Shown: in pieces, positions 19,071-60,479 of the stretch | How positions within the stretch are numbered: position 1 is the stretch's first letter | Layout: each line of letters starts with the position of its first letter | DNA from: Paraescarpia echinospica | Taxonomy: Eukaryota > Annelida > Polychaeta > Sabellida > Siboglinidae | Assembly: GCA_020002185.1 (NCBI GenBank) | Contig: CM034533.1 | Location: 37,246,833-37,310,832 of the forward strand | Direction: 5' to 3' | Length of the DNA: 64,000 nucleotides | Notes under the pieces: generated by a model | Databases searched by the model: none | What the model saw: the letters and a program-made list of their open reading frames with translations, nothing else | What the model was told of the DNA's origin: nothing | Translations under genes and position numbers: made by a program

Positions 19071-19094
19071 GAGACTAGTTTACCCCGGAGTGCT

Positions 19095-22207: not shown

Positions 22208-22826
22208 GTTTGCAAACTAGTGCAACACACGAAACAATCACTAAACGGATATCACGTTTAAGTAATACACAAGGTCAATCACCTATAAACCACAAAAGTG
22301 CTAGCTACGCTACAACACTCCACACAATCTTCTCATAAGACTGGAATAATGAAATCACTATACGATTTCATCCACGCCGTGTCAACTATCAACACACGGA
22401 AATTCTGTAAGACTTTAATCTACCCAATGCCAACTCGGCAATTGCAACAAGTAATTCAACTTCCTCGTACAGCTGAAAAATAACAAAGCTCCTACTTACA
22501 ATAATTATACGATTAATTCATGGTCCTTTACTGCTGCAATAAACAAGTCTAATGCCTCAAAACGTGAATGACACATTATAAATATAACGAGAAATATGGG
22601 ACTCAAAATTAAGTCCGGGCAGAAACGACAAGGGGCATGTGAATTACCCTACACTACAGCTACTGGAATAGATGTAGGTTTCGTCTCTAGCCACGGAACA
22701 ACGCTGACACTCCACGGAACCAGAGTGCTACTAAGTTCTCAGGCATGTTCTATGTTGCCGTCACGTGTTACCCGCAATTCATATCGTTGACCGAAGGTGT
22801 TATTTTAATTTCCCCCTCGCCGGAAT

Positions 22827-32499: not shown

Positions 32500-33762
32500 C
32501 TATTCCATTCGGCTTAGGTAGTCTGCACCTATGTTATCTGTTCTAGGGATTGACTCTACCCGGAAACGATAGGGTTGGACTTTAAGAGCCCACCGCATAA
32601 CGCGATTGTTTGTTAACTTCGCAGTGTTTAGGAATTTCAGGGATCGTTGATCACACTGCACAATGAAACTTCGCCCATATAGGTATAAGTGAAATTTCTC
32701 GAGTCCCCAAACAATTGCCAGACATTCTCCTTCTACTACGGAATGTCGCCTTTGCGTGGGATTGAGCTTCTTGCTCGCAAACGCGACTGGGAATAAGACT
32801 CCGTTATTCTCGTGAAGTAACATTGCTCCGAGTCCGGTATCGGACGCATCTGTGCGCAAGACAAAGGGTTTGTTGACGTCAGACAATTTGAGGATAGGCG
32901 CCTTACACAGGGCCTGCTTCAGTTGAATGAAGGCCTTATCCGCTTCATCATTCCAACTTAAATTGTTAGGCTGTTTTGCCTTTGTGAGATCAGTCAATGG
33001 AGCCACGATTCTGGAATACCCATTAACAAACTTCCGGTAATATCCTGCCAAACCTAGAAAAGACCTCACTTGTTTCTTCGTGGTAGGAATGGGCGCATTC
33101 CTAATCTTGTTTACCTTGTCTTCCTGGGTCTTCACTTCTCCTTGACCTACTTGGTGCCCCAGGAAATCGACGGATTCAAACCCAAGATAACACTTCGACG
33201 GTTTTATTGTGAGACCCGCTTGTCTCACTCGGACGAACACTGCCCGCAGTGTTGATAAGTGATCGGCCCATGTTGAGGTGTGAATCAATACATCGTCAAC
33301 ATAATTGGTAACACCACCGAGGCCATCTAAGAGTATGCGCATCATGCGACTGTACGATGCGCCGGCGTTGACTAGACCGAAAGGCATGACGCAGAATTGG
33401 AACAACCCTTGGGAAGTACAAAATGCGGTTTTCTCCTTATCTTCCGGTTCCATCCTTATTTGCCAGTAGCCTTTGCAGAAATCTAGTTTGGACAAGTACC
33501 TATCTTGTCCCACCTCAGCCAAGATAGTATCGGGATTTGGCATAGGTTCTGCATCGAATTTAGTAACCTTGTTTAACTGGCGAAAATCCAATTTATGAAT
33601 TAGCAACAAAGGCGATGAGTAAGGTGAATGAGATGGCTCAATCACGCCCATTTCTCGCATCTTCTCAACCTCCTGTTTTACCACTCCCAACTTGGCTAAT
33701 GGAATAGGGTACGGTTTGCATCTCACGGGACTAGAGGACGTTACCTCAATGGCATGGGACAA
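32500..33762 (-). pseudogene. Gypsy-2 reverse transcriptase and RNase H
   Basis: As in Gypsy-1 but with the RNase H complete: R-T-D-A-S-D-T-G, the E-G-E-C-L-A-I-V-W-G-L-E-K-F block and the C-terminal D-N-I-G-A-D-Y-L-S-R. The polymerase keeps P-F-G-L-V-N-A-G-A and Y-V-D-D. The segment between L-L-L-I-H-K and D-F-R-Q-L-N-K is shorter than in the family, where a K-D-G-x-x-R-F-C-V run is usual. A stop just upstream separates it from the integrase frame. Confidence 0.85.
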
Positions 33763-33771
33763 GAGACTAGT

Positions 33772-35061
33772 TTACCCCGGAGTGCTCGAAAAGATGGAAG
33801 GAAATTCTTCCATTAGCTGTTTCAAGTCTCGTGTCTGATCAGGTGATAAACTATCACTCACATGGACATCCCCAAGGTTTTCCTTTCTCTCAGGAATGGG
33901 AAAATCTTCATCAGTCTCACATTCAGGTTGTTCTTCGACAACAGCAGCTAAACCTAGCATCTCCACATTACCTCTCTCATAGTATTTCTTCATCATGTTG
34001 ATGTGGAAGAGTTTACGATTATCTCCGATCTTTACCTGATAATCGTTTATCCCCACTCTCTCTATCACCTCATATGGACCCTTCCATTGCATGAGCAACT
34101 TGTTTGAATCAGTGGGGAGAAGGATGAGGGCTTTGTCTCCTACTTCTAGGGTTCTCACCTTGGCCTTTCGATCAAAGTGTTCCTTATACCGGTCTTGAGA
34201 ATTCTTAAGATTCTCTCTAGCTAGTTCGCAAGTTGATTCTATCCGATTACGGAGATCCACTACGTACTGGTACGTTTCTACTAGCTCATCGTCTGGTTTC
34301 TCATTCTCCCATAACTCTCTAAGAATCATCATAGGCCCCCTGACTGTCCTTCCATAGAGTAACTCAAAAGGGGAAAATTCCATGCTCTCCTGGGGTGCTT
34401 CGCGGTATGCAAACATGAGAGGTTCCAGATACGGATCCCAGTCTCGTGGACGTTCAGAGCCCACCCGCCTTAGCATCCGTTTTAAAGTACCGTTCCATTT
34501 CTCTACCAATCCATTTGCCATGGGATGGTAAGGAGAAGAGTGGACTTGTTGGATAGAGAGTAACCTAGCTACCTCGGTCATAGTTTTTGACACGAACTGA
34601 CTGCCATTATCGCTGAGTACTACTTTAGGCAGACCCACCCTTGAGAAAATCTTCAGAAGAGCCTCTGCTGTCGTTTCCGTGTCGATATTCGACACCGCTA
34701 CCGCTTCCGGCTATCTAGTAGCGAAATCTACCAGGGTTAAGATCCATCGATTACCTCTCTCTGTCACTGGGGTTATGGGACCTACCAAATCTACCGCTAC
34801 CTTTTCAAAGGGCGTGTTTACGATGGGGATCATTTGTACGGAAGCCTTAGGGACATTGCCTCGACTGACGGTCCTCTGACAGATGTCACATGACTGGCAG
34901 AATCTGTGGACATCACCCACTATCCCTGGCCAGTAGAAGTTAAGGAGGATTCTGTCTAGCGACTTCCTAATTCCCTGATGTCCAGATAGGATGGTTTCAT
35001 GTCCTAACGTCATGACTCGATTGCGCAAAACTCGGGGAACTACTAGTTGTTTCAGTCTCAC
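33772..35061 (-). pseudogene. Gypsy-2 integrase
   Basis: Zinc-binding HHCC, DDE core and GPY/F module as in Gypsy-1, with the same in-frame TAG after V-D-F-A-T-R. The C-terminal end (M-E-E-F-P-S-I-F-S-S-T-P-G) is the usual leader into a Gypsy reverse transcriptase, which directly supports integrase lying upstream of it. Confidence 0.85.
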
Positions 35062-35665
35062 CCTCTTTCTCTTTCTGATACAAGCGATAAAGGAGCCCCC
35101 TTTTGATCACGAATTGACTTGTTTGTTCTCCCGTAGGTTTCCCTTTAGTCTCTTCAGCCGAATCAAAGCATTTCTTTAAGGTATCATCCCCTTTTTGCTC
35201 TCTCAAGAAATCATCCACGGATATACTCGCACCAACAACTTGAGGCACTATCAAAGGTTTCGTGGGTTTAGAAAGGCGCTCCCGTTGAGCACGGGATTCT
35301 ACAGCACAACCGGTGACTGGGGTGTCACTCAAGGGGGTCTCAACAGTAACGGGGACACCATCTGACTTGGTTCCTCGAAAAGGAGAACCTTCACTTTTAT
35401 CAACGTTGCCAATGATTAAGTCATAAACGGGGTTGTTTAGACATAGGGCTTCAATTTCTCCTGTGAAAAAGGGAGTTCTCACATAGCACCGGGCAGTTGG
35501 GATTTCAATGACGGATCGGTCCATCAGCATAAGGACTTTGGTTTTCCCAGTTAACTGATCTTCCGGAACTAGGTTACGTCGTACAACGACTCCGTTACAC
35601 CCGCTGTCGCGTAGTACTTTCACTGGGATCCCCCCACATACCCCTCTACAACCGGTAAGGTACAA
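34997..35665 (-). CDS. Gypsy-2 aspartic protease and linker
   Basis: Same frame and active site (D-S-G-C-N) as Gypsy-1, one residue different (Y-D-L-I-I-G-N). Overlaps the gag end in the -1 frame. Confidence 0.75.
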   Translation of the reverse strand: MYLTGCRGVCGGIPVKVLRDSGCNGVVVRRNLVPEDQLTGKTKVLMLMDRSVIEIPTARCYVRTPFFTGEIEALCLNNPVYDLIIGNVDKSEGSPFRGTKSDGVPVTVETPLSDTPVTGCAVESRAQRERLSKPTKPLIVPQVVGASISVDDFLREQKGDDTLKKCFDSAEETKGKPTGEQTSQFVIKRGLLYRLYQKEKEGETETTSSSPSFAQSSHDVRT

Positions 35666-36426
35666 CTGTTTTCATGTTGTACAACAAGCATAGCAGTTAC
35701 GGGGATCTTACATCCACATTGCAAAGTCCCACCCACAGGACATTGGTGACTAGGGGAATTCTGGTTTAGCACAACTGCACAATTCCCAACCACTGGTTTC
35801 ATCCTTTGTGGTGGAGGATTCCTATTCTGCACTCCCACTGTACACTGTCTCGCGATGTGACCGGGCCGATTACAAAGGAAACATGTACGCGGCGGAGGAA
35901 CGGGCCGAGGGGTAGGGCTAGAAATGGGGTACTTCCCCTCCCCTGATCTACTTTTCGGGACGGGTGAAGGGACGGGAGTTGGTCGGACTCGGTCTCTACG
36001 ATTTTCCCGTTTACTATATGATGAATGGGCATATGTAAATGTTCTCACCAATTCTAACAAATTCTCTTTCCCTACCGGTTTGCGTTCTTTCAGAAACACG
36101 GACAGTTCCCTAGGGCACATAAACAAGAATTGCTCTCTCAGAATGAGTTCCTTAAGGCCCTCGAAAGACTCATTAATGTTTGACAAAGAAATCCACTGAG
36201 TCAAATAATGCTCCATACGAGCAAAATACTGCGACACCGTTTCGGTGGAATTTAGAGAACAGGTGTAAAACTTCTTACGAAAATCGCCTACAGTCAGTCG
36301 GTACCATCCTAGCAATGATTGCTTTAACTGGTCATAATCGTTGGCCACGGAGATCGGGGAACGGGAATAAACTTCCAGTGCATGACCAGTAAACAATGCG
36401 CTCAGAAATATAGCGTAATTCTCGCG
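35620..36426 (-). pseudogene. Gypsy-2 gag, C-terminal part
   Basis: Capsid-like region, Pro/Arg-rich stretch and CCHC knuckle (C-F-L-C-N-R-P-G-H-I-A-R-Q-C). The gene is cut at CTCGCG by the Polinton left end. The open frame runs on for about 20 codons into the Polinton repeat, which is not part of gag. The N-terminal part is at 49423-49905. Confidence 0.85.
35629..35635 (-). promoter_or_regulatory. Candidate -1 frameshift site, G GGG GGA
   Basis: Same heptamer and register as in Gypsy-1, at the gag/protease overlap. Confidence 0.6.
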
Positions 36427-36722
36427 AGTAGTTACTAGGTTGTTCACAGTACGGGTCATGACCCGAGATCGAAGGAAAGTAGGCAAATATCAAAGGGAAG
36501 ATCAAAGGATTTGTCGGCATGAGGCGCCCAAGAGGCTCTTTTGAGTCTTTACTTATAAAAAACCGTACGGCTTACTTATAAAAAACGTTTGAATGATATT
36601 TTTTGTGGCGCCTGCATTCAGCGCCTCTAGTGAGATAATCGATAATGATAATCGATAATGTGCTGACCTCTAGTGAATAAACACATGATGATAATCGATA
36701 ATGTGCTGACCTAAACAATAAT
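36427..36722. repeat. Polinton left terminal inverted repeat
   Basis: Matches the right end in inverted orientation for about 300 bp: terminal AGTAGTTA, GTTGTTCACAGTACGGGTC, the GGCGCC-containing block and two ATAATGTGCTGACCT units. Small differences show the two ends have drifted. Confidence 0.9.
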
Positions 36723-36766
36723 CGTAGCGCCTCTAGCGAGAAAATAGATAATGACACTTATGTGGT

Positions 36767-36773
36767 TATATAG
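36767..36773 (+). promoter_or_regulatory. TATA-like motif before the NADAR gene
   Basis: TATATAG lies 39 bp before the NADAR ATG, just inside the left repeat. A plausible core promoter for the rightward genes; position and sequence are the only support. Confidence 0.35.
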
Positions 36774-36811
36774 TGGTTACGCGTGAAGCGTAGTCAGTTT
36801 AGATCAGTGGT

Positions 36812-37264
36812 ATGGAGCCTATACGTTTTGGAGGGTCGATGTCGTACCTGTCGAATTTTCATCCGTGTAGAATCGCGGCGTATGGTCGGGGTTTCAAATA
36901 CGTCGAGCACGCTTACCAGTTTAGAAAAGCGATGTTTAACGAAGAAGAAGCAAGCGCGGAGTATATCAAATCGGCGTGGTCGGCCTATGTAGCGAAGCGA
37001 CGAAGTTACGGAATCAAGAAAACGAGAACGGGCGCCGAATGGGACGCTGTTAGAGTCGAGTGTATGAAGAGCCTGTTGATGAGTAAGTTCGGGGCGACGA
37101 AAAAGTTCAAAGACGCCCTATTGGCTACCGGGGGCGCCGAATTGGTGGAGTGGGTACCGTCGAAAGAAGCCTTTTGGGATTGCGGCTACGGGTATAAAGA
37201 AGGTCAGAACATGCTAGGTAAATTGTTGATGGAGGTGCGTCATGAATATAGAAGAAACGAATAA
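36812..37264 (+). CDS. NADAR/YbiA-like domain protein
   Basis: 150 residues with the hallmarks of the NADAR (DUF1768, YbiA/RibX) family in order: Y-L-S-N-F at 12-16, E-H-A-Y-Q-F-R-K-A at 32-40, a central W77-x3-R81, K-F at 92-93, L-L-A-T-G-G-A-E-L-V-E-W at 103-114, F-W at 121-122 and N-M-L-G-K-L-L-M-E-V-R at 133-143. It fills the whole domain and the frame is open. Known members split N-glycosidic bonds: bacterial YbiA acts on riboflavin intermediates, and others remove ADP-ribose from guanine in DNA. It is the first gene inside the left repeat, 36 nt before the ATPase and on the same strand. A role in protecting element DNA or countering host NAD-based defence is inference. Confidence 0.85.
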   Translation: MEPIRFGGSMSYLSNFHPCRIAAYGRGFKYVEHAYQFRKAMFNEEEASAEYIKSAWSAYVAKRRSYGIKKTRTGAEWDAVRVECMKSLLMSKFGATKKFKDALLATGGAELVEWVPSKEAFWDCGYGYKEGQNMLGKLLMEVRHEYRRNE

Positions 37265-37300
37265 AAGTCATCGTTCGTTATCCGCGCACCAGTCGTCGAT

Positions 37301-37927
37301 ATGGACGCGTCGTGGAAGCATCCTTTTACGTGTATAGTGGCTGGCCCTACGGGGTGTGGTAAGACTACTTTCGTCGCTCGTCTGCTAAAGTTCGCTTCTT
37401 CTATGATCGAGCAGCTGCCGGAGAAAATCCTGTGGTGTTACGGCCAGTGGCAAACCGCCTACGACTCTATGACAGCCGGTGTAGAATTCGTAGACGGTTT
37501 GCCTGATCCGAAGCTTTTAGACGCCAAAACGAGGACGCTTCTAGTACTCGATGACCTTATGGAGGAGACCGATAGTCGGGTCACGACCTTGTTTACTAAA
37601 AAAAGTCATCACTGCAACGCGTCCGTCGTACAGCTTCTGCAGAATCTTTTTCCAAGAGGGAAAGAAAATCGCACAATCAGCTTAAATACGCAATTCATGG
37701 TCCTCTTCAAGAACCCCCGGGATGCGGGTCAAGTAGGTCACCTGGCGAAACAGATGTATCCGGGTAGAACCAACTACATGATGGAGGCCTTCAAAGATGC
37801 CACGTCAGCAGCCTACGGTTACCTCCTGGTGGACCTGAAACAGGAAACACCGGAAACCATGCGCCTGCGTACGGCCATTTTTCCCGACGATCGCATTCAG
37901 TACGTCTATGCGCCGACGAGAGTATAA
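37301..37927 (+). CDS. Polinton genome-packaging ATPase (A32/FtsK-HerA type)
   Basis: 208 residues. Walker A G-P-T-G-C-G-K-T at 15-22 and Walker B L-L-V-L-D-D-L-M at 80-87, followed by a sensor-like region with Q-L-L-Q-N-L-F and F-K-N-P-R-D. This is the typical size and layout of the Polinton ATP gene, related to poxvirus A32 packaging ATPases. It would pump DNA into a capsid. The frame is fully open, unlike most neighbours. Confidence 0.92.
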   Translation: MDASWKHPFTCIVAGPTGCGKTTFVARLLKFASSMIEQLPEKILWCYGQWQTAYDSMTAGVEFVDGLPDPKLLDAKTRTLLVLDDLMEETDSRVTTLFTKKSHHCNASVVQLLQNLFPRGKENRTISLNTQFMVLFKNPRDAGQVGHLAKQMYPGRTNYMMEAFKDATSAAYGYLLVDLKQETPETMRLRTAIFPDDRIQYVYAPTRV

Positions 37928-37931
37928 AAAG

Positions 37932-38308
37932 TGGAGCGCGTCGCGGCCGACGTCATTCGTCAGGCTGACAGAGCGCGTGAAGAGGCACATCCTAGCCCTA
38001 CAGCTGTTGCGTAGATAAAAGCGGAATACGGATCTGAGAAAACCCGTAATCGCCCACGCAGATTCCGATCTCATCTGTAGTCTGTGCGACTGCGCGTACA
38101 ACATTCTGAGAGGGAACGTGAAATTGTCGGCGAAACAGAAAAAAGTGCTGACAAAGTACAGGAACCATCTGCGCAAGCTAACGACAAAAAAGTTTCTATC
38201 AAACAGAAGAGGGCCGTCCTGCAAAAGGGGTCGGGCGATTTTCTGACGGTGCTGCTGACGCCTTTGGCGAGCGCCTTTTTGCCCTTCCTCAGACAGGCTA
38301 TAGGTTGA
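37932..38308 (+). pseudogene. Conserved small Polinton protein, broken
   Basis: Two frames together resemble a small basic protein common in animal Polintons: a basic start (E-R-V-K-R-H-I-L-A-L), a C-D-C-A-Y-N-I-L-R-G-N-V core, a Lys-rich stretch (S-A-K-Q-K-K-V-L-T-K-Y-R), then a hydrophobic tail (L-T-V-L-L-T-P-L-A-S-A-F-L). A stop near 38016 and a one-base shift in an A-run near 38185 break it. Probably a minor virion or core protein. Confidence 0.6.
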
Positions 38309-38973
38309 TGCAGCACGCGAAGAAGATGACGCTGGTATATCCCCGGTTGGTGGAGCGTCTACTGCCTTTACTATCGCAACCGATCACGACCACGTCGCCT
38401 GTGATGAGTAGCCTGGACGACGACATGAAAACCGTTCTCGAGCATACGGATTTGTCCGAACGAGAAAAGGTAGCGGCGTACAATTAACTGCTGAGTCGCT
38501 ACAACGCCATGGAGAAGTCTCGAGCGCAGCAACCGACGCGAGTGTCCGTAGTGAACGACGAAGAGTCGACGACGACGACGAAGATCAACCAATCGCCGCT
38601 GCCGCTGCAGCCGGACGATACGGAGAACAAGATCGTGAAGAGCGTACCAAAAAATCTGAAAGAAAAGGCCCGCCTCCTGATGGCAAAACTGAAAACCGAC
38701 CCGTTGATTCGCTCGAGCGATCGAGGGGAGCTCGTATACGACGGTGCGCCTATCGCTGGAAGCAACATGGTAGATCTAGTGAACGATCTCATGCGAAAGA
38801 GGAAGAAGACGCCCGCGCCGGTTGGCTGGGAAGCGTTCGGGGACCATATAAAGCGGTTCAACGTCCCTATGGAGCTCGTCGGTAATCCCCAGCGTCGATC
38901 GTACATACAACGCGCTCAGAAGCGAAAGGCCCGCACTCAATCTCTCGAACGCGCGCCGTGGGTCGCATATTAA
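38308..38973 (+). pseudogene. Conserved Polinton protein of unknown function, one stop
   Basis: ATG follows the previous gene directly. The N-terminus H-A-K-K-M-x-L-V-x-P and the C-terminal block with R-G-E-L-V-Y-D, V-D-L-V-N-D-L-M-R-K-R-K, G-W-E-A-F and V-G-N-P-Q-R match a protein family seen in many animal Polintons, usually near the integrase. One TAA at 38485-38487 interrupts it, at a place where CAA would be expected. Otherwise one frame of about 220 codons. Function not known. Confidence 0.7.
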
Positions 38974-39010
38974 AGAGGTCGAGAAACGCCCGAGCCGCTC
39001 ACAAGCTAGT

Positions 39011-39199
39011 ATGCCCACTCGAAGATCGATACTCGTCGTCGCCCTAGCCGGCGTAGTCGCGGCGGCTTTCGCCCTATACATCTGTATATTGTTCACCGTA
39101 TCGGATTCGTCGACGACGTCGCCAAGGTGGCGGTGTCCCGGCGGTCTCGTGTTGCACAACGAAAGCGCCAACAACAACAACAACGGGACGACCGCTTGA
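39011..39199 (+). CDS. Small membrane protein
   Basis: 62 residues: a short basic N-terminus (P-T-R-R-S), one strong hydrophobic helix at about 7-30, then a Ser/Thr/Asn-rich tail. Looks like a single-pass membrane protein. It overlaps the presumed integrase start in another frame. No family recognised; it could be spurious. Confidence 0.4.
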   Translation: MPTRRSILVVALAGVVAAAFALYICILFTVSDSSTTSPRWRCPGGLVLHNESANNNNNGTTA

Positions 39200-40171
39200 A
39201 ACGCGCCTACTTCGATCCGAAACGGGCAGGCAGTTACGGCGGCGTTCACGAGTTGCGCCGGGCGACTGTAGTACTCAAGCCGATCGTCGAGCGGTGGCTA
39301 TCGGAGCAGGACACCTATACGCTTCACAAACCGGTCAGACGACGTTGCTTTATAGTAGGCGGTCGAAACCAACAGTGGCAAGTCGATCTCGTCGACGTAG
39401 CTAAACTAAAAAAAAGCACAACGATGGTATAGCGTTCCTATTAACGGTCATCGACGTCTTCTCGAAGCGGGCGTGGTGCGTTCCGTTGAAGAGTAAAGCC
39501 GTTCCGGCGCTCATTACGGCCTTCGGGGGCCTGCTGCTGTCGCAGCCGCCGCCGAACGCCCTGCAGACCGACAAGGGGACGGAGTTTCTCAACAGGCCCT
39601 TTCAGAAACTTTTGAAGGCGCACGGCATCCACCATATCGTGACGCACAACGAGGAGACCAAAGCGAGTGTCCTGGAGCGATTCAATCGTAAGCTGAAGAC
39701 ACGCTTCGGGAGGTACTTCACGAAGCATCAGACGCTGAGGTACGTGGAGCCGTTGCAGGACTTCGTGCAGTCGTACAACAACGCCTATCATCGAAGCATC
39801 GGTAGGACGCCGGCGAGCGTCAACGCCGCGAATCAGGAGAGCGTGTGGCAGCGGCTGTACGGCGATTCAAGAAGGGGTACATGGCTAACTGGAGCGAAGA
39901 GCTCTTCACCGTCGTAGAATCGCACCCGTCCGTCCCTCCCGTTTACCGATTGATGGACGACGCCGGAATGATACTGGATGGCACCTTCTACGAACCGGAG
40001 CTACAAAAGGAAGTCGTCTCCAAGGATAAACTGTATCGGGTGGAGGCGGTTCTACAGAGGCGTCGTCGACGACGTGGTAAGGTTGAAGAGGTGCTCGTCA
40101 AATGGTCCGGCTATCCGGCCTCGTTCAACAACTGGATCGACGCCAAGGCGCTCGTGGACTATAAGGGATGA
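39127..40171 (+). pseudogene. Polinton integrase with chromodomain
   Basis: Begins with the conserved D-D-R-L-K-R-A-Y-F-D-P-K segment. DDE catalytic residues are visible: D in W-Q-V-D-L-V-D-V, D in Q-T-D-K-G-T-E-F and E in S-V-L-E-R-F-N-R. The C-terminus has a chromodomain (Y-R-V-E-A-V-L-Q then W-S-G-Y-P-A-S-F-N-N-W). Two frame breaks: one at an A-run near 39412, one near 39865. At the second, the segment that usually links the catalytic core to F-K-K-G-Y is shortened, so this is a deletion and not a simple one-base error. Confidence 0.9.
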
Positions 40172-40380
40172 CTTGGATGCGATACGCGAAGTGCTGGAGA
40201 ATAAAAGGCGGGTGCAGCTGTATCGACAGAGCGCCCAAAGGCGACAACAGCCGTCGTCGACCACGGCGTCGGCACCCCCATCGGCGAACGCGCTCCATAG
40301 CGTCTCTGCGCGATAAAGGAAGGCTACCGTAGCGTCGGACGGCAGTCGCGCTATGACCACCGACGAGAGGACAGCAGCCG

Positions 40381-40695
40381 ATGCCGAATACCGCCGTCGA
40401 CTCAGACGTGTTTGTCGAAGAGCCGGCCGTCGACTCATGCGTGACTGTGGATGCGCCCGATGCCGTCGACGACTCCTCCGTCACGAACATTCCGTGGCGT
40501 CTCTGCGGCAACGAATGCCCTCAAGCCGAGATCACCTCCCTGTGCCAGATCGTCGTCCTGTACACGGTTATCGTCGTCAGTATATACAATCTAACGCGCG
40601 GCCAGGGCGACTCCAACCTATGGACGGCGCTGCTGAGTAGCTGCCTCGGCTACCTACTACCGAGTCCGTCTATGAGACGCGATGGCGTCGTCTGA
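40381..40695 (+). CDS. Small Polinton transmembrane protein
   Basis: 104 residues. An acidic N-terminus, then N-E-C-P-Q-A-E-I, one hydrophobic helix (about 52-72), and the C-terminal L-W-T-A-L-L-S-S-C-L-G-Y-L-L-P motif. The last block recurs in small membrane proteins of many animal Polintons. It ends 14 nt into the penton gene. Function unknown. Confidence 0.65.
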   Translation: MPNTAVDSDVFVEEPAVDSCVTVDAPDAVDDSSVTNIPWRLCGNECPQAEITSLCQIVVLYTVIVVSIYNLTRGQGDSNLWTALLSSCLGYLLPSPSMRRDGVV

Positions 40696-41580
40696 CTTTT
40701 ACTTGACGCTGCCGAGCAACGCGTCTATGAAGGCGCACCCCGAAAACACGTTGACGCACTACACGGCGAATCTGCCGCAAAGCGTCGACCTGTTGGGCCA
40801 GTGGGAATGCGGTCTGGTGACGGTACAGTACCCGCATAGCTGGTACAAAGTTACAGAGGCGGACGCGTACTTCTTTCTGGCCTGTAAGGTGGGGGAGCAG
40901 GACCTGTATGTCGCCTCGGACGGTACTATGATTTACCGGCAGGGCGTCATCTCTCACGGTTTTTAAAACAGCGCCTACGAGTTGATGCACAAAATCAACG
41001 CCGCCCTGATGAAACTGAGCACCGATAAGGTCAAGGCCTGCTTGGAGTACAGCCCCATTTCTAAACGGATGACGCAGCATCTTTCGTCGGGCGTCGAATT
41101 TAACACACCCCTCGGAGTGGCCTGGCGACCGTACTAGGCTTCGAGTCGCACTATATCGTGAACCCCGATCCGCCGAGACATAACGCCGACACCTACGACG
41201 ACCCCGAACGAGGACGCGACGTCGACCCGAGCGTGTACGTCGTCACCTCGCCCGTCGCGTACACCTACGAGTACGAGGGTGAGCGTACGGTGGACATGAA
41301 TCGGGGCGTCGACTGCCTGTACGTGTATATGGACATCGTAGAGCCGCGCATCGTCGGCGACGTATACGCCCCGCTTCTCCGAACCGTGCCCGCCTACGGG
41401 ACGAACTGGCTTATCGTATCGAACGCCTTCGACCGCGTCCAATACGTGCCGCTCCTGCGGCGCCAATTCGATTAGGTCGAGATAGATATAAGAGACGACA
41501 TCGCTCAACCGATACCATTCGAGCAGGGGAAACTCGTGTCGACGCTTCACATCAGACGCTGCAAGTCCAAACTGTACTGA
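40682..41580 (+). pseudogene. Polinton minor capsid (penton-like) protein
   Basis: Starts M-A-S-S-D-F-Y-L-T-L-P-S-N-A-S-M, the well conserved start of Polinton penton proteins (single jelly-roll). Later landmarks: V-Q-Y-P-H-S-W-Y, Y-V-Y-M-D-I-V-E-P, V-Q-Y-V-P-L-L-R-R-Q-F-D and I-D-I-R-D-D. Breaks: TAA at 40964-40966, a frameshift near 41115 and TAG at 41473-41475. It lies directly upstream of two other virion genes. Confidence 0.82.
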
Positions 41581-41585
41581 CGACG

Positions 41586-42017
41586 ATGGCGGCGCTAGCG
41601 AGAGCCGGGCGCAACGCGTACGAGGACTACTACACTCGACAGGTCGGCGGCAACCTGCCGGTGTTCGTCGGCGGCATAGCGCATCGGGGACACGGCCTGG
41701 GCAATCTTTTCTGCAGCCTGTTTCGAAGCGCCATGCCGCTCATCAAGAGAGGGGCCCTGGCGCTGGGGAAGCGCGCTCTCAATACGGGTGTGCGCGTGGC
41801 GTGGGACGTCGTCGCCGGCGACAATTTGAAACAGTCGATAAAGCGACGCGCGAAGGAGGAGGGCGCCGACCATCTCGACGGGCTGTTGAATTCGTCGCCG
41901 ACGCCGAAAAAACGACAACGGCAACGCATAAAACCGCCCGGCGCGTCGGGGACGATCAGTAAGAAGCGGCGCCGTAGAAAGGAACAGACGTCGAGCGATG
42001 ACGTATTCCCCGCGTAG
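41586..42017 (+). CDS. Polinton core/minor virion protein, adenovirus pX/pVI-like
   Basis: 143 residues. The central G-H-G-L-G-N-L-F-C-S-L-F-R-S-A-M-P-L-I-K block is an amphipathic Gly/hydrophobic segment typical of this Polinton protein. The C-terminus is strongly basic (K-K-R-Q-R-Q-R then S-K-K-R-R-R-R-K), fitting DNA or membrane binding. Open frame, 5 nt after the penton stop, and it overlaps the next frame. The analogy to adenovirus core proteins is tentative. Confidence 0.65.
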   Translation: MAALARAGRNAYEDYYTRQVGGNLPVFVGGIAHRGHGLGNLFCSLFRSAMPLIKRGALALGKRALNTGVRVAWDVVAGDNLKQSIKRRAKEEGADHLDGLLNSSPTPKKRQRQRIKPPGASGTISKKRRRRKEQTSSDDVFPA

Positions 42018-42024
42018 AAGAAGA

Positions 42025-43310
42025 ATGGCGTTCGTACATCGACAGTCGTGCGAGGACCTAAAGAGCGAACTGGACCTATTCTGCGTCCCGATGACGCAGA
42101 CAAGCATCGAGAGCGGTCAATGGGTCGATCACCAGCCGCTGACGACCCTCGACGCGGGCGGCCCTATCGAGTTTCTCGTCTCGGGCTCCGGAGACGACTA
42201 TCTCGACCTGGCGAGCGCTAGACTGTACGTGCGATTCAAGGTGGTGCAAGGGGACGGCACCGATCTCACGGACGACAGCGTCGTGGCGCCGGTCAATAAT
42301 TTCCTGCATTCGATGTTCAGTCAAGTCGACGTGTCGCTGAACGGCACGCTCGTGACGCCGTCGACAAATACGTATCCGTACCGGGCCTATATCGAGACCC
42401 TGCTGAGTTACGGTTCCGACGCCAAACAATCGCAGCTCGAGACCGACCTGTGGCGCAAGGACACCGCCGGGCACATGGAGGCGACGGCGCAGGCCAACAA
42501 CGGGTACGCACATCGGCACAACTTCATACACGGCAGCCGCGAGGTGGATATGTTGGGACGCCTGCACGTCGACGTTTTCATGCAAAACCGGTACCTACTG
42601 AACGGCGCCGACGTAAAGGTCCGACTGGTGCGAAGCGAGGACGACTTCGCGCTCATAGGCGCCTTCGTCGATCCGGGGTTCAAAATAGTCCAACTGGAGA
42701 CCTACCTGCAGGTGCGAAAGGCCAAGGTGAACCCGGCCGTCCAGCTCGGTCACATCAAAGCGCTGACTAAGGGGACGGTCAAGTACCCGATGCGTCGCAT
42801 CGTCTGCAAGAAGTTCTCGATACCGCAGGGCACGATGGCTCATACGCACGAGAACGTCTACACGGGGACGCTCCCGAATCGCGTGTTCATGTGCCTAATC
42901 GACAACGACGCCTACAACGGGGCCTACGATAAAAACCCGTTCCACGCGAAGCACAACGATATAAACTTTCTCGCCCTCTACGTCGACAGACGCCAGGTGC
43001 CGAGCAAGCCGCTGCAGCCGGTCTTCGATCGCCGGCTCTACATCCGAAGCTAAACGAACCTCTTCGCCGCGACGGGAAAGCGTGTGAGGACGAGGGGAAC
43101 GACCTGACGCGCAACGACTTCGGCGGCTACACCGTCTTCGGCTTCAATCTGTCGCCCGACTGATCAGACGGCGATCACTTCAACGTCGTGCGTAAGGGGA
43201 ACCTGCTTGTGGAGAGATCCACTTCGCGCAGTCGGACGGTGAACGTGTACGGGGAGTTCGAGACAGTGCTCGAAATCGACAAGAACCGGAACGTCGTGTA
43301 CGACTACTGA
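42025..43310 (+). pseudogene. Polinton major capsid protein (double jelly-roll)
   Basis: From M-A-F-V-H-R-Q-S-C-E, the usual start of the family, through S-E-L-D-L-F, P-V-N-N-F-L-H-S-M-F-S-Q-V-D, Y-P-Y-R-A-Y-I-E-T-L-L-S-Y-G and R-L-H-V-D-V-F-M-Q. Many animal databases label this family F54H12.2-like; it is the major capsid protein of Polintons. The frame is open for 343 codons to 43053. The conserved tail (G-G-Y-T-V-F-G-F-N-L-S-P and onward to 43310) follows after an in-frame TAA and further breaks. Pieces of a related gene appear in the foldback at 56.8-62.9 kb. Confidence 0.88.
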
Positions 43311-43314
43311 GGAG

Positions 43315-43764
43315 ATGGACACGTTTCAGCTGATACGCCGCCTGGCGGTCGACGCGTACACTAAAAACGTCGTCGTCGGCGTCGTGCATAAAGACGAGCT
43401 ACCGAGGCTGCGGCTCACCGCCTACCAGACGGCGTTCGTGTGCAACACCGACGACGGCGACGATCCGTGTGAGCACTGGGTGACCGTCTACGTGGACGCC
43501 GACCGACGAGGCGACTACTTCAATTCGTACGGACTGCCGCCGCGGCACGCCGACTTTCGCGCCTTCCTTCGCCGCAACTGCGACTCGTGGACGTACAACG
43601 ACAAGAGACTGCAGAGCGGCGTATCTAACGTGTGCTGCCAATATTGTGTCGCCTACCTGCTCTAACGATGCCGCGGTATGCCGCTAAGCGGCTTCCAGTG
43701 CCTGTTCGGCTCCGATAGTGTGGCCAACGACTGTCTCCTATTCGACTGGCTAAAGCCGCATTAA
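43315..43764 (+). pseudogene. Adenain-type cysteine protease
   Basis: Similar to Polinton and adenovirus maturation proteases. His54 in C-E-H-W-V-T-V-Y, Gln100 and Cys111 in C-C-Q-Y-C-V-A-Y-L-L are in place. The acidic catalytic position, usually D in F-D-S-F-G, is Asn70 here (Y-F-N-S-Y-G). A TAA at 43663-43665 comes before the conserved C-terminal piece (F-Q-C-L-F-G...V-A-N-D), which continues in frame to 43764. It would cut capsid precursors if active. Confidence 0.82.
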
Positions 43765-44100
43765 ACACTTGCTTATCGCTTGTTATTATTACTAGTAGAC
43801 GACGACGACCGAGTATCCGAAACGACTTTGTCGGACCCGCAGGTCGCGGGCTCCTCGCCGTACTAGGCAGGCAAGTCCGAAGTAGTGAGGTTGTTGTGTA
43901 GTAAATAAAACGATAAAAACTGTACTGCGTGTTGTTCACTCATTTTTTAGTAGTCCCTACATACATACGTACATACCCTACATACATACATACCCTACCC
44001 CTAGGGGGCGCCTCCCTTAGGTAGGTAGGTAGGTAGGTAGGTAGGTTTATACGAGTATCGGCGCCGTAGTTACGCCGTCGTCGAGCACGCGACGTTTGGC
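43765..44100. repeat. Spacer between convergent genes, with TACA and TAGG repeats
   Basis: Holds CATA/TACA repeats (about 43958-43998) and seven GGTA units (about 44018-44047) around CTAGGGGGCGCC. It separates the rightward capsid block from the leftward polymerase, so transcription from both sides ends here. An AATAAA is present at 43903 on the + strand. Confidence 0.7.
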
Positions 44101-47100
44101 TTAGAAGTAGCTAAACGCCGCGCGCTCATGAATGTACGTCAGCACGGACGATTCCTTCACTTGGAAGCCGCGGTTCCAGCCGCCGGCGCTCCGTTGTCCG
44201 CGCAGCACGCCGAGGAAGACGTCCTTGTCGATGTCGTGCTGACGCTTGCTCTGCCCCTTCGTGCTGTACTTGTCGCCGCCGCCGGCGGCGCCGCCGAAAC
44301 AGTGGTAGGTCTTCCTGCAGAGCGCGACGATACAGCGACCGGACCATTCCTCTTTGAAGAAGCCCGGCGTTCGCTTACCGTACCTGCGCCGTTTCGCGCA
44401 ACTTTCGGCGGGCGCGTCCCACGCTCGGCTGGCGAGCCGGCACCGCACGTACGCCTCCGCGTGCGCGTCGCAGTGTTCAGAAGGGAACCACTCTCCGCGG
44501 TGCCGGAAGTAGTGTTCGCGCTTAGCCGTCGCCACGAGCTCGTAGAGGTCGCGTCCCGGGAGGCTCAAATACGCCGAGTCGGTGTCCATCGCGCAGTACT
44601 GGAACAGGGGGCGCAGTACGTAGGCGGCGATGAAGTCGTAGTAAAACTCCAGCATACGCAGTTTGGCGTACTGGTACACGAAGTAGCCAATCTGGATGGA
44701 CAGCGCGTACCGGACGGTTCGCTTGTTCAGCGCCATCTCGCAGAGAGCATCGCGAACGACGACGTCGATCTGCCGGAAGCGTCGATCGTTGATCAGCGTC
44801 GCGGCGCCGGCGGACGTGCAGAACTTGATGTCGCGGTGCAGATCGACCCACGTGATAGTTTTCCCGTAGGAACTGTTCCCGAGAAGCTTGAACGTCGCGC
44901 GGCGGAGACCGTGTCGCCGAAGCGACGAAAGCACGCGATTGGCTCTTACTCGACGATCTGGTACACGCGCTCGACGACGAGTCCGTGCCGCAGATATCAC
45001 CGTAGTAGCGGCGTCGTGAGTAGAATGTTGGTGGAGAAAAAGCTCCCCACCAGCGTCAGCTGAGGTCAGGCGAGGTGCTCGTGCGTTTCGGCGTAGCGAT
45101 GCATGAACGGGCTGAGATCGTCGCGCGCGATGTAGGCGTTCTTGAAGATCGGCTGCATTTCGGCGAAGGCGTCGCGCAGCGCGTCCTGGACGGCGATGTC
45201 GCATTCGACCAGGCCGAACAGAGCGCCGTCGAGCACGGCCTTCAGGATCGTCGACCGCGTAACGGCGCCCTTGCCGTCGGTCCATCTCCGCGGCGGCGGC
45301 GTCGGCGGCGGCCTCGTCGCGCGCCACTGGCACTCCCAAGTCTCGACAACGGTGACGAAGCGGTAAAGGTAGGCCGTGACGGCGGCCGTCTCGGCGTACA
45401 GTTGAGTCATCGGTTTTCCGTTCACCGCGTTCGTCTCCTTCCTCGTGCATGGGCAGCCGTGGAAGAAGCACCCTTGGAACTGGTACGCCGTCCGCGTCTC
45501 GCAACACCAGCCGTCGACCCGGTACTTGCCGACGAGCTTCTCGCGCCCGTTGAGCTGTTGTCGTATGCGCGTCCCCGTACGCTCAGCCTCCCATGTCAGC
45601 CACTCCACGGCCAAGCGGCCGTAGCGGTTCAAGCGTTCCGACCGAAAGTCGTTCTCCACGCGACGGCGCGTGTACCACCCCGTCGGCATGTCCTGCGTGA
45701 TAGCCCATAGGTAGAGGCCGTTCGCGTCGAAGCCGACAATTGAGCGGCAGGGCCGCGCTGTCTCGCCGTACTCTTCTCGCAGAAGAACGGTCACGTCGGC
45801 CTCGTGATAGCGCGCAAATATTGTCGAGGGAGCCGGTGCAGGTCCTTGTTCGGCTCGTTGAAGAGCGTGAAGTGGAGCGTCGACGGCAGGTCGTTGAACA
45901 GGTACAGCAGGGTTAGACCGGGTACGCTGATGGCGTCTTTGAACATGTCGAAGAGGCACTCCCGATAGAAGGCGAACTGTTTGTCGACGCCCTCCAAGAA
46001 CGGCACCACGTCTCTGTTGTTATACCAGACGAGGAAGTCCTGCAGCGTCATCATCCCTTCGTCGCGCCATACCTTCGCGCAACCCTCGTACTCCGCGGTG
46101 GAGATGCCTTCGTGCTTCAGGCGGCTGTAGAAGGCCTCGCGCGGTGGCAGTTCGGTGTCGTCCAGTTTTCGCAGGTCGTCGAGGTACTCGTAGGGAAAGT
46201 GGTCCTTCGTCACCTCGCAGCCGTAGGCCTTCAGAAACTTATCGTAGCTGAAACCGGGGACCAGGTAGTTGGTGATGTCCAGAAACTTGGGCGTCGCCGT
46301 CGTTAGACACATGAAGTTGTTCTGACGCTTCATCTTAAACGCAGACGAGACGCTCTGCGCCTCGCTGATCATGAACAGGGGCGTGAGATACTTGTTGACG
46401 ACGTTCACATCGTATTTACCCGAATTGAAGCCGAGGACGGAGAGACGGCGCAGATGCGTCCACAGTTGGTCGGCGAGCACGGTGTACGGTGTCTTATCAT
46501 GCGACGCCTTCTTCTCAGTCGCGCGAGCTCGCCATTCGTCGTCGAGCGCGGCGATCGCCTCGAAGGTCGCGTATTACGACGGTCGCAGAGCCGCGCACGC
46601 TGCCTCGCTCATGGCCTCCAGGGCGACAATCAGGCGCTTTGCGAGCTCGCTCGAATCGCCGGTTGTGACGAAGCAGCGCGCCGTCTCGTGCCCGGGGACG
46701 TTCGAGGCGACGCTCACGCTCAGTAACTTGTGTCGGGCTATCCATCGGCATTTGGCGCTGTCCGCCGGCAGGTCGCGATCGTCGAAGTAGCACTCGAAGT
46801 CGAACGTCGCCCTGTACGGGTAGTAGCGCAGGCGTTCGTCCACATAGACGCCCTCGTCCTCCAGCCGTTGAAACACGGACGGCGTCGGATGGTAGACGCC
46901 GCCGGGGAAGACGTGGCGAACGCCGCCCTCGCACGTCGCTTCTTGGCGCCGTAGTCGATGAGCGGTCGCGCACAGCGACGCGCCGCACTTACCGCATAGG
47001 TACGAGCGACAGAACATCGAGAAGTCGGCTATATACGAATAGTGCGTCTCGAACAGATTTATGTTGATGGTAGTCGGGTAGCGGTGGAGGGAACGGCGGA

Positions 47101-48056
47101 CCAATTCGGCGGACCCCTCCGCCGTCAGTCGATACACGGTCACGTTGGTTTCGAAGACCTTCTCCAACCAGTCGAGCTCGTTCAGCGGAACGCTGGCGAA
47201 CGCGTAAGGTTGGGGTCGCCGCCGCCGGCGCTGTGGTCGGCGTAGAGTTTCAAGGCCGGGGACGACAAATCGTCTACGCGGTATCTAGCGCCTCGATGCA
47301 GCGCCAGACAGCGGAAGAGGCACAGGTTATCGGTGTACGGCTGATTGTGTCAATCTTTCGCTAGACCGATGAGTGCCTTGTTGTTGCGCAGGTAGTCGGG
47401 GAGTCGCTGCCGCGGCGCGCACCCGATAGGATGGTTGATGATGGCGTTGAGGAAGTAGGCAACGTTCGTCACCGATTCGGCGATCCACCCCGAGTCGGGT
47501 CTCTGCGCTATGACGTACTGAAGAACGTCGGACGACGTCGAGGAATCGTTCGAACGATGCGGCGTCGGTAACGAAGGCGGGCGACTCGAGATAGCGGCCG
47601 CAAGTTACACGAGGAATGGTAGTATTTGTAGCGGCCCGTCTCCTTGTGACGAAGAATAAACCCGAAACTTAAGTTTATTTTAAACGCTCGAGTCTGCTCC
47701 TCGAACTTCAGTCGTATTCGGGCGTCGAATTCTCCCGTGTCCAAACTGTCGGTCATTTCGTAGTTATATCTCGACTGGACGGGACCGCGCACTATAGACG
47801 TGCGGATGCTAGACCAGTGCTCGTGAACGGTACGCCATAGACCGTAGTCGTGCGGTTGTTGTGGTGGTGGCGGCGGCGACGGCGGCGGAATACCGCAAGC
47901 TTGTAGATGCCTCAACATATTATCGCGACGGGAAAACGTTTGATCGCATTTCGGACATCGATGCCGCTCTCTCCGTGAACCGTCGCAGACTTTTAGATGC
48001 CTCATTATACTAGGGCGACTGGCGAAAGATCGACCGCATTTCGGGAATTCGTGCAT
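44101..48056 (-). pseudogene. Protein-primed type B DNA polymerase, N-terminal zinc fingers
   Basis: About 1300 codons spread over several frames. N-terminus: two C2H2/C2HC-type fingers (C-P-K-C-D-Q-T-F-S-R-R-D) and a Pro run. Then F-K-I-N-L-S-F-G-F, Y-K-Y-Y-H-S-S-C-N and the N-L-C-L-F-R-C-L-A block. Exonuclease motifs: F-D-F-E near 46800, G-F-N-S-G-K-Y-D near 46430, Y-N-N-R-D near 46020. Polymerase motifs: A (D-A-N-G-L-Y-L, near 45725), B (K-L-L-G-N-S-S-Y-G-K, near 44880), C (D-T-D-S, near 44585). At least six frame changes and a TGA at 47350-47352 break it. It would replicate the element from its inverted ends. Confidence 0.92.
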
Positions 48057-49100: not shown

Positions 49101-49422
49101 TGATTAGGTCAGCACATTATCGTTTATTCACTAGAGGTCAGCACATTATCAATTATCAGTATCGATTATTTATTCACTAGAGGTCAGCACATTATCGATT
49201 ATTATTATCGATTATCTCACTAGAGGCGCTGAATGCAGGCGCCACAAAAATATAATTCAAACGTTTTTTTATAAGTAATCTGTACTGTTTTTTATAATTA
49301 AAGACTCAAAATAGCCTCATGGGCGCCTCATGCCGACAAATCCTTTGATCTTCCCTTTGATCTTTGCGAATTTATTTTGATCTCGGGTCTTGACCCGTAC
49401 TGTGAACAACCTAATAACTACT
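49101..49422. repeat. Polinton right terminal inverted repeat
   Basis: Inverted match of the left end, slightly longer because the AGGTCAGCACATTATCG unit occurs three times instead of two. It ends CTAATAACTACT. Confidence 0.9.
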
Positions 49423-49905
49423 GTCGCGCTCCCAACCCTGGTTTTCCGCATATCTTTCAAAGCGCTGGAGATAGGCATCAATCGAATCCCTGTCTTCGTT
49501 CAAACAGGGTAACGGAGGACAACGGACTCCCTTAGTAATGGCTGATGCATTACTCACCGAATCTTGGTTCTCTTAGGTAGTAGCCTCGTTGTGGAGCCTG
49601 GCCATCTTTTCTTCAAGCTCCATTTCGCGCGCGCGCATATCGGCCTGCGTTGCCGCCTCTTTTTCTCGGAGCTCGGCCTGGAGCCTCTCTTTCTCCATAT
49701 CGGTCTGGAGCCTCTCTTTCTCCATATCGGCCTGCCTTGCCGCCTCCTTTTCTCGGAGCTCGGCTTGGAGCCTCTCTTTCTCCGCCTCGCGAGCGGCCTG
49801 TCGCTCAGCCCGGGCGGTTCCTTGTTCATCACGAACAAATGCCTGAAGTTCGGGACCTGTTAACCCTAACTTCTCGCCTAACTCAATTAATTGAGCAAGA
49901 TCCAT
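49423..49905 (-). pseudogene. Gypsy-2 gag, N-terminal part
   Basis: Starts M-D-L-A-Q-L-I-E-L-G-E-K and has a coiled coil with a different repeat make-up from Gypsy-1: E-R-L-Q-A-E-L-R-E-K-E-A-A units mixed with D-M-E-K-E-R-L-Q. It is broken by a stop near 49575 and cut at GTCGCG by the Polinton right end. Confidence 0.8.
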
Positions 49906-50530
49906 GTTTGCAAACTAGTGCAACACACGAAACAATCACTAAAAGAAACGGATATCACGTTTAAGTAATACACAAGGTCAATCACCTGTAAACCACAAAA
50001 GTGCCAGCTACGCTACAACACTCCACACAATCTTCTCATAAGACTGGAATAATGAAATCACTAAACGATTTTAACCACGCCGTGTCAACTATCGACACAC
50101 GGAAATTCTGTAAGACTTTAATCTGCCCAATGCCAACTCGGCAATTGCAACAAGTAATTCAACTTCCTCGTACAGCTAAAAAATAACAAACCCTACTTAC
50201 AATAATTATACGATTAATTCATGTTCTTTTACTGTTGCAATAAACATGTCTAATGCCTCAAAACGTGAATGATACACTATAAATATAACGAGAAATATGG
50301 GACTCAGAAGAATTATGTCCGGGCAGAAACGACAAGGGGCATGTGAATTACCCTACACTACAGCTACTGGAATAGATGTATGTTTCGTCTCTAGGCACGG
50401 AACAACGCTGACACTCCACGGAACCAGAATGCAGCTAAGTTCTCAGGCATGTTCTATGTTGCCGTCACGTGTTACCCGCAATTCATAGCGTTGACCGAAG
50501 GTGTTATTTTAATTTCCCCCTCGCCGGAAT

Positions 50531-57965: not shown

Positions 57966-58019
57966 GTATAATGCTCGACGTATGAACACGTGAGCGTTGT
58001 ACATTCTTGCCAGCTTAAT

Positions 58020-58560: not shown

Positions 58561-58563
58561 CAG

Positions 58564-60360: not shown

Positions 60361-60479
60361 GATTCACTAAACTGGCAAGAATTTACGATGTTCACGTGAT
60401 CATACGCTAAAATTCTAAGGCGTTAATTCGGTAATGCACTACACTGGCACGAACTTACGACACTCACGTGTTCATACGT

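What the first reader, a model, noticed from the sequence alone, without database searches (positions are those of the whole stretch)
36812..37264. A NADAR/YbiA-like gene as first cargo gene of a Polinton
The gene sits just inside the left inverted repeat, on the same strand as the packaging ATPase and 36 nt upstream of it. Its frame is intact while most structural and replication genes nearby are broken. NADAR enzymes act on N-glycosidic bonds, including removal of ADP-ribose from guanine in DNA in DarT-NADAR systems. A mobile element with exposed linear DNA could gain from reversing ADP-ribosylation or blunting NAD-based defence. I do not know whether NADAR has been reported from Polintons.
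Basis: partly seen in the sequence, partly recalled or inferred. Interest (0 to 1): 0.82.

Follow-up and report, generated by a model that had tools for sequence, protein, structure and literature searches.

The report
ADP-ribose-removing enzyme gene in Polintons
Virus-like jumping elements (Polintons) in an animal-type genome often carry, beside their DNA-packaging gene, an enzyme gene of a family known to strip ADP-ribose from DNA and RNA bases, possibly to undo a chemical attack on their genomes.

Summary
Observation confirmed and enlarged. The ORF at 36812-37264 is a NADAR domain (PF08719, E 3.3e-24) inside a 12,996-bp Polinton (36427-49422) inserted in a Gypsy gag gene, 36 nt before the packaging ATPase. 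It is not a lone capture: the same 1.08-Gb genome gave 2,556 first-look NADAR candidates, and 150 of 150 scored passed the cut-off. The ATPase lies beside NADAR in 16 of 20 loci read with 3 kb flanks and in 13 of 30 with 1.5 kb flanks. Two NADAR lineages here and a third on a tubeworm-associated contig (NADAR beside the Polinton polymerase) form one clade apart from the other NADARs sampled. dN/dS is 0.25-0.36 (diverged lineage A pairs; lineage B), and six aligned active-site residues are kept in 51 of 51 copies. An abundant ATPase subfamily shows no NADAR upstream in 4 of 4 places, so the gene is not universal. Most likely it reverses guanine ADP-ribosylation of element nucleic acid; that step is inferred. 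No DarT match in the host. The window copy has G123D, unlike the other 50 copies. Open-paper searches found no NADAR in Polintons.

The parts
36427..36681 (.). left terminal inverted repeat of the Polinton
   Evidence: (I3, I9); outer end AGTAGTTACTAGG at 36427; inner limit approximate
36812..37264 (+). NADAR gene, 150 aa; aligned active-site residues E32, K39, K62, W77, R81, E113, W122; G123D in this copy
   Evidence: residue mapping to the Phytophthora enzyme
37301..37927 (+). packaging ATPase (Pox_A32 / Adeno_IVa2 type), frame intact
   Evidence: Pox_A32 25.5 bits, cut-off 22.8
37962..38955 (+). two small Polinton proteins of unknown role (called PXa and PXb here), damaged
   Evidence: tblastn with ORFs of L129
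39196..40171 (+). retrovirus-like integrase with chromodomain, in three frames
   Evidence: rve 39.7 bits, Chromo 33.7 bits
40685..41577 (+). probable penton protein, damaged (name recalled from Polinton gene order)
   Evidence: no Pfam name for the piece 41104-41472 or for the L129 relative
41619..42038 (+). small virion-type ORF (protein VI-like; name recalled)
42025..43307 (+). probable major capsid protein, frame broken at least once (name recalled; no library names it)
   Evidence: no Pfam hit, no PDB sequence hit for its L129 relative
43315..43755 (+). adenovirus-type protease
   Evidence: the relative in L129 matches Peptidase_C5 at E 7.7e-4, below the cut-off
44050..48008 (-). type B DNA polymerase with N-terminal zinc fingers, broken (5 apparent frame changes, 6 stops)
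   Evidence: the relative in L129 is DNA_pol_B_2; zinc finger; 'protein-primed' is recalled
49169..49422 (.). right terminal inverted repeat
   Evidence: inner limit approximate
35620..36426 (-). Gypsy gag, part on one side of the insertion
   Evidence: (SCAN, zf-CCHC)
49423..49914 (-). Gypsy gag, part on the other side of the insertion

Best explanation
The gene is a standing accessory gene of a group of animal-type Polintons, carried in tandem just upstream of the packaging ATPase in two lineages and kept by purifying selection while elements were active. SHOWN by sequence: NADAR fold and residues, Polinton membership, amplification in the host genome, a recurrent NADAR-ATPase order in two lineages of this genome, a third lineage elsewhere, and dN/dS below 1. 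INFERRED: the protein is an ADP-ribosyl N-glycosidase that removes ADP-ribose from guanine in the element's DNA (exposed as single strand during replication) or mRNA, cancelling a host or rival ADP-ribosyltransferase; being encoded next to the ATPase, it would be made with the packaging genes. Confidence: about 0.95 for the gene being a maintained Polinton gene, about 0.4-0.45 for guanine de-ADP-ribosylation as counter-defence.
For: Pfam and fold. 150 of 150 scored candidates over the cut-off in the own genome. ATPase beside NADAR in 16 of 20 loci with 3 kb flanks (two only as a fragment) and 13 of 30 loci with 1.5 kb flanks. 20 of 49 ATPase places have a listed NADAR directly upstream on the same strand, gap 22-41 nt from the end of the 150-codon match. 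Six contig lengths shared between the NADAR and ATPase database rows compared, 0.005 expected in a jitter simulation. NADAR and a polymerase N-terminus on one 4.1-kb contig filed with a tubeworm symbiont. One clade of these NADARs: FastTree 0.998, ultrafast bootstrap 94. dN/dS 0.25-0.30 for lineage A pairs with dS 0.3-1.0 and 0.36 in lineage B. E32, K39, K62, W77, E113 and W122 in 51 of 51 copies. Published activity: the NADARs tested in the passages read reverse guanine ADP-ribosylation on DNA and RNA (PMC11543638; PMC11125620; PMC11833690). Invertebrate guanine-N2 ADP-ribosyltransferases exist (pierisin, clam CARP-1; PMC11209040). NADAR-like folds in giant viruses, yellow head and gill-associated virus.
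Against: No DarT match in the host genome (six-frame search without introns); other guanine-modifying transferases could not be searched. 101 of the 150 ATPase rows, by my sorting, form a subfamily with no NADAR upstream in 4 of 4 places read, so some Polintons amplify without it. 6 of 30 and 1 of 20 NADAR loci show no other Polinton gene within the flanks read. R79 of the Phytophthora enzyme, which binds the pyrophosphate, is not conserved (Y66 here; Lys in lineage B). The window copy itself has G123D. Close lineage A pairs have higher dN/dS (0.50 below dS 0.1, 0.40 at dS 0.1-0.3), which I read as dead copies drifting. Copies came from a list ranked by fit to the NADAR profile, which biases NADAR dN/dS downward. 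No activity was measured.
Confidence: 0.5

Rival explanations
1. NADAR acts on small metabolites: a YbiA-like N-glycosidase that clears reactive nucleotide intermediates or recycles NAD/ADP-ribose, giving infected cells more NAD or nucleotides. Its link to the ATPase is only an expression arrangement.
For: Bacterial and plant NADARs are described as N-glycosidases removing reactive riboflavin intermediates (PMC11543638 passage). E. coli YbiA is the best PDB sequence hit.
Against: The NADARs tested in the passages read also act on guanine-ADP-ribose. A metabolic housekeeping role gives no clear reason for placement in a compact element of 13 kb.
Confidence: 0.2
2. NADAR counters protein-directed or NAD-directed host immunity (for example PARP-type antiviral ADP-ribosylation or NAD depletion) by binding or removing ADP-ribose, rather than acting on nucleic acid.
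For: NADAR-like folds occur in RNA viruses of invertebrates (yellow head and gill-associated virus) and in giant viruses, which need not share a DNA target.
Against: No protein substrate is known to me for NADAR; in the passages I read the known reversals are of guanine modification.
Confidence: 0.18
3. A toxin-antitoxin-like pair: NADAR neutralises an ADP-ribosyltransferase encoded by the element itself or by another Polinton.
For: DarT-NADAR and YarT-YbiA are such pairs in bacteria (PMC11125620 passages). Damaged ORFs of unknown function remain in the element.
Against: No transferase among the element pieces scanned with Pfam and no DarT match in the whole genome.
Confidence: 0.07
4. Chance capture of a host gene with no function in the element.
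For: The window copy is in a damaged element and carries G123D.
Against: Recurrent gene with conserved placement in many diverged copies and dN/dS well below 1 in diverged pairs.
Confidence: 0.03

Closest known systems
YbiA subfamily of the NADAR superfamily (PF08719)
   Same: Fold, core residues, and the Glu (E113) that marks the YbiA subfamily; compact 150 aa without an extension (lineage A)
   Different: Encoded by a eukaryotic integrating virus-like element; lineage B has an added N-terminal region; the R79 equivalent is lost
DarT1-NADAR toxin-antitoxin (BC4488 subfamily)
   Same: Predicted guanine de-ADP-ribosylation
   Different: No DarT partner found; the subfamily residue is Glu, not Asp
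NADAR domains of retrotransposons (Ectocarpus Gypsy Pol, Crassostrea Tx1 LINE ORF1; PMC12477816, passages read)
   Same: NADAR domain acquired by eukaryotic mobile elements
   Different: There it is part of Pol or ORF1 of a retroelement; here it is a separate gene of a DNA element beside the packaging ATPase
NADARs of giant viruses, phages and invertebrate nidoviruses
   Same: Virus-encoded NADAR
   Different: Different virus groups; the Polinton genes form their own clade apart from the bacterial, IMG/VR and unnamed database NADARs sampled; giant-virus and nidovirus NADARs were not in that tree
Animal NADARs (arthropods, nematodes, molluscs and others; PMC11125620 passage)
   Same: NADAR in animal genomes; some of those reported could themselves lie in mobile elements (my inference)
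   Different: Not compared here; no named animal host NADAR was in the trees
Polinton/Maverick elements
   Same: Inverted ends, 6-bp target flanks, integrase, ATPase, protease, type B polymerase
   Different: An added NADAR gene, which I found in no paper searched

Membership tests
NADAR superfamily (PF08719) | profile match over the curated cut-off | tested here: met
   86.4 bits against a cut-off of 35.1
NADAR superfamily (PF08719) | YbiA fold | tested here: met
   pLDDT 93.7; TM 0.82 to 2b3w and to 8bau
NADAR superfamily (PF08719) | ADP-ribose-binding and catalytic residues (Phytophthora E43, K50, K75, W89, R93, E125, W133) | tested here: met
   Window E32, K39, K62, W77, R81, E113, W122 by the alignment and the residues named; 51 of 51 copies keep all but R81, which 48 of 51 keep. 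R79 is not conserved.
NADAR superfamily (PF08719) | hydrolysis of guanine-linked ADP-ribose | not testable with these tools
   needs purified protein
YbiA subfamily | Glu in the last strand (Asp in BC4488, His in phage gp30.3) | tested here: met
   E113; definition from PMC11125620
DarT-NADAR system | adjacent DarT | tested here: not met
   no transferase among the element pieces scanned; no DarT match in the own genome
Polinton/Maverick | long terminal inverted repeats and 6-bp target duplication | tested here: met
   36427 and 49422 with CTCGCG/GTCGCG, 5 of 6 matching
Polinton/Maverick | integrase, ATPase, protease and type B DNA polymerase | tested here: met
   (protease below the Pfam cut-off in the L129 relative)
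Polinton/Maverick | double jelly-roll major capsid protein | tested here: inconclusive
   ORF homologous to one in another Polinton; no Pfam or PDB sequence hit; not modelled

The most novel reading that the evidence does not exclude
Polintons of an animal are locked in a nucleic-acid ADP-ribosylation conflict: the host (or competing elements) ADP-ribosylates guanines of element DNA or RNA, and NADAR is a dedicated eraser placed next to the packaging motor in two lineages of one genome and recruited at another position (near the polymerase) in a third. This would be a eukaryotic counterpart of phage anti-DarT defence.
Probability: 0.35. Interest if true: 0.88.

Novelty: new variant of a known kind. 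Interest (0 to 1): 0.64.

Why it matters
The physiological role of NADARs in animals is stated to be unclear (PMC11125620 passage). A gene kept beside the packaging ATPase of abundant virus-like elements gives a concrete biological setting. It predicts that guanine ADP-ribosylation is used against mobile DNA or RNA in invertebrates, which can be tested directly in vitro and by looking for the modification in element DNA.

Tried and rejected
Intact frame as evidence of selection: rejected, because a 450-bp gene survives by chance often enough (one search counts; my Poisson estimate). Chance capture: rejected. IMG/VR as a source of related Polintons: the ATPase gave no confirmed relative, by single protein or by alignment; the 80 NADAR loci kept there (of 186) plus the 44, searched with the window's Polinton pieces at E 1e-5, gave one hit, on L081. 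DarT as the opponent: no match in the own genome.

First values for lineage B NADAR (dN/dS near 0.8-1 or above) and the trees were wrong, because the lineage B query was cut out of frame. They were replaced (dN/dS; its tree step timed out; trees). Lineage A values and the residue counts used the correct frame. The lineage B marker was the same off-frame peptide, so its percentages there mean little, but in-frame NADAR was found in all 50 loci and positions agree for the first 30.

Host identity: the 1.08-Gb genome has very large contigs and resembles the tubeworm Paraescarpia echinospica (1.09 Gb, 14 pseudochromosomes, N50 67.53 Mb; PMC8476170 passages), but by my arithmetic on the contig lengths shown the N50 is near 71.4 Mb, and the contig count (3,111) does not fit either, so no name is claimed. 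Other-species evidence for lineage B is weak: P0215 is 89% identical to own copies. Whether the third lineage is present in the own genome did not complete.

Literature seen: PMC11543638 passages plus section 12; PMC11125620, PMC12477816, PMC11209040, PMC8476170 and PMC11833690 passages only; the rest as search listings. 'Not in print' rests in an open-licence library only.

Full report
WHAT IS THERE. The ORF at 36812-37264 (+) encodes 150 aa. Pfam finds one family, NADAR PF08719, 86.4 bits, E 3.3e-24; PHROGs finds phrog_1017 at E 1.3e-31. The predicted structure is confident (mean pLDDT 93.7), and only two PDB entries match it at E <= 0.001: E. coli YbiA 2b3w and the Phytophthora NADAR-ADP-ribose complex 8bau. 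Mapping the residues named in PMC11543638 section 12 through the printed alignment gives E43=E32, K50=K39, K75=K62, W89=W77, R93=R81, E125=E113, W133=W122; R79 becomes Y66.

THE ELEMENT. The inverted ends start at 36427 and end at 49422, 12,996 bp, flanked by CTCGCG/GTCGCG, and on both sides lies a Gypsy gag reading frame. Gene order: NADAR, ATPase (Pox_A32 hit), two small ORFs, integrase plus chromodomain, probable penton, a small virion-type ORF, probable capsid, protease, and on the other strand the polymerase. The polymerase and protease names are supported by relatives in L129 (DNA_pol_B_2 over the cut-off, Peptidase_C5 below it). Capsid, penton and protein VI names are recalled from Polinton gene order and come from no call. 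The polymerase shows 5 apparent frame changes and 6 stops; integrase, capsid, penton and the small ORFs show one to a few lesions each, some of whose 'stops' may be natural ends. NADAR and ATPase are open.

NOT A SINGLE COPY. In the own genome (1.08 Gb, 3,111 contigs) the NADAR profile gave 2,556 first-look candidates, of which 150 were scored and 150 passed the cut-off. The window protein as query gave 2,978 candidates; the 150 scored are the window itself and 149 others at 80-92% identity. Candidate numbers are not confirmed copies. Of the 30 best NADAR loci (1.5 kb flanks) 13 show the ATPase, 11 show only other Polinton-type ORFs (one of them the source of the query used) and 6 show none. 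Of 20 further loci (3 kb flanks; every second rank from 32 to 70; 60 were planned and 40 could not be fetched) 16 show the ATPase (two of them only a fragment), 3 show other Polinton genes, and 1 (L165) shows none. The lineage B ATPase query came from L137. Starting from ATPases, 20 of 49 places compared have a listed NADAR directly upstream on the same strand with a gap of 22-41 nt. The 49 are rows sorted out by eye; the 101 other rows, at 88% identity with a 226-227-aa frame (one 1,903 aa), were left out, and one row of that look (C2:70220213) was kept. They were compared with the 150 NADAR rows and 9 of the 150. Both lists are capped, so 20 of 49 is a lower bound.

THE EXCEPTION. For that abundant ATPase subfamily I read about 860 nt upstream of 4 copies and found no NADAR in 4 of 4. 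So NADAR is common but not universal in the Polintons of this genome.

OTHER GENOMES. Database searches gave relatives at 70% and 62% on short contigs, one of 62% on an 802-nt contig filed as a Chromatiales bacterium, two of 53%, and many near 41% on long contigs (120 of 5,621 listed). So NADAR and Polinton ATPase lie on the same contigs there; the distance between them is unknown. A 4.1-kb contig filed with the symbiont of the tubeworm Escarpia laminata has NADAR and, downstream on the same strand, a stretch 39.6% identical to the N-terminal zinc-finger part of the window polymerase (E 4e-34). There NADAR sits at the polymerase side of the element, a different place. That this contig is animal DNA misfiled with the symbiont is my inference.

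PHYLOGENY. From 306 aligned NADARs (rows with too few aligned columns were dropped; the number was not printed) the window falls in a 77-tip clade (support 0.968, midpoint root). It is made only of long-contig proteins, the Escarpia contig (entered twice, L081 and L125) and the short-contig relatives. With own copies added in the correct frame, all such NADARs form one clade (FastTree 0.998, 32 tips; ultrafast bootstrap 94, 24 tips of a 47-sequence tree). Its sub-clades are A (window; 0.935, bootstrap only 68), B (own copies with an N-terminal extension; 0.998, 100) and C (Escarpia and others; 0.982, 100). The outside sequences are bacterial genomes, IMG/VR contigs and mostly unnamed database proteins. 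Animal host, giant-virus and nidovirus NADARs were not in the tree, so the donor is open.

SELECTION. Lineage A, 12 copies: dN/dS 0.30 (31 pairs, dS 0.3-0.6) and 0.25 (13 pairs, dS 0.6-1.0), but 0.50 (7 pairs, dS below 0.1) and 0.40 (15 pairs, dS 0.1-0.3). The ATPase in 7 of these copies gives 0.25 and 0.20 in the two wider bins and 0.45 (4 pairs) and 0.33 (1 pair) in the narrower ones. Changes shared by two or more copies give 0.19 for NADAR and 0.07 for ATPase, singletons 0.37 and 0.29, as expected if selection acted while elements were active and faded in dead copies. Lineage B, 39 copies: pairwise mean dN/dS 0.36, shared 0.36, singletons 0.45 (replacing out-of-frame values). The copies include some stop codons (4 in lineage A NADAR, 9 in its ATPase, 4 in lineage B NADAR). 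Copies were taken from a list ranked by fit to the NADAR profile, which lowers NADAR dN/dS; the ATPase values do not suffer from this directly. E32, K39, K62, W77, E113 and W122 are present in 51 of 51 copies and R81 in 48 of 51. Residue 123 is Gly in 50 of 51, the exception being the window.

HOW IT MAY WORK. The NADARs tested in the passages I read remove ADP-ribose from guanine in DNA and in RNA (PMC11543638, PMC11125620, PMC11833690). Invertebrates have guanine-N2 ADP-ribosyltransferases: pierisins of butterflies and CARP-1 of clams, the latter without a receptor-binding domain (PMC11209040). A Polinton that replicates by protein priming exposes single-stranded DNA (recalled). The simplest mechanism is therefore an eraser that keeps element DNA or mRNA free of guanine-ADP-ribose. 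What is missing: the opponent. DarT had no match in the host, and the pierisin-type search did not complete. RNA viruses of invertebrates and giant viruses also carry NADAR-like folds, which suggests a benefit shared by unrelated viruses.

WHAT IS KNOWN. NADARs are reported in phages, in giant viruses and nidoviruses, in retrotransposons and in many animals. A search for NADAR with Polinton found 0 papers. NADAR with Maverick found 2 papers, unrelated by their titles. YbiA with virophage found 0. The six-term search showed no paper holding both a NADAR term and a Polinton term among the 15 of 16 listed. The library holds open-licence papers only.

Noticed in passing
G000 ATPase hits, for example C3:39087300, C12:5369192, C9:3041354, C1:69863517: An abundant, near-identical Polinton ATPase subfamily (101 of 150 rows by my sorting, 88% identity to the window's, mostly 226-227-aa frames), with no NADAR upstream in 4 of 4 places; it looks like a recent amplification of its own kind.
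   Followed up: partly
G000:C6:17053790-17054410: One ATPase copy lies in a 1,903-aa open frame, far longer than any other row.
   Followed up: no
L135, L141: L135 carries a second, damaged NADAR between the first one and the ATPase; L141 has a second NADAR fragment on the other strand.
   Followed up: no
L137, L150, L157 and other lineage B loci: Lineage B NADARs have an N-terminal extension with repeated KTPNYH..AAFSDSDVDEP units (about 287-aa frames).
   Followed up: no
L132, L152, L171, L177, L179: A sub-group of lineage B has NADAR within 3 kb of protease and capsid ORFs on the opposite strand or in another order, a rearranged Polinton layout.
   Followed up: partly
L081, L129-L131 (contigs filed with the Escarpia laminata symbiont): Polinton contigs are included in a bacterial genome bin (probable animal DNA), including one of 11.8 kb with long open Polinton genes.
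   Followed up: partly
window 17898-22216 and 32503-36426: Two Gypsy elements whose ORFs look near-identical by eye, one of them carrying the Polinton in its gag.
   Followed up: no
window 57993-60393: Tandem arrays with units of about 41 and 24 nt and mutually inverted copies.
   Followed up: no
BFVD hits: A NADAR-like fold inside replicase polyproteins of yellow head, gill-associated and nido-like viruses of invertebrates.
   Followed up: no
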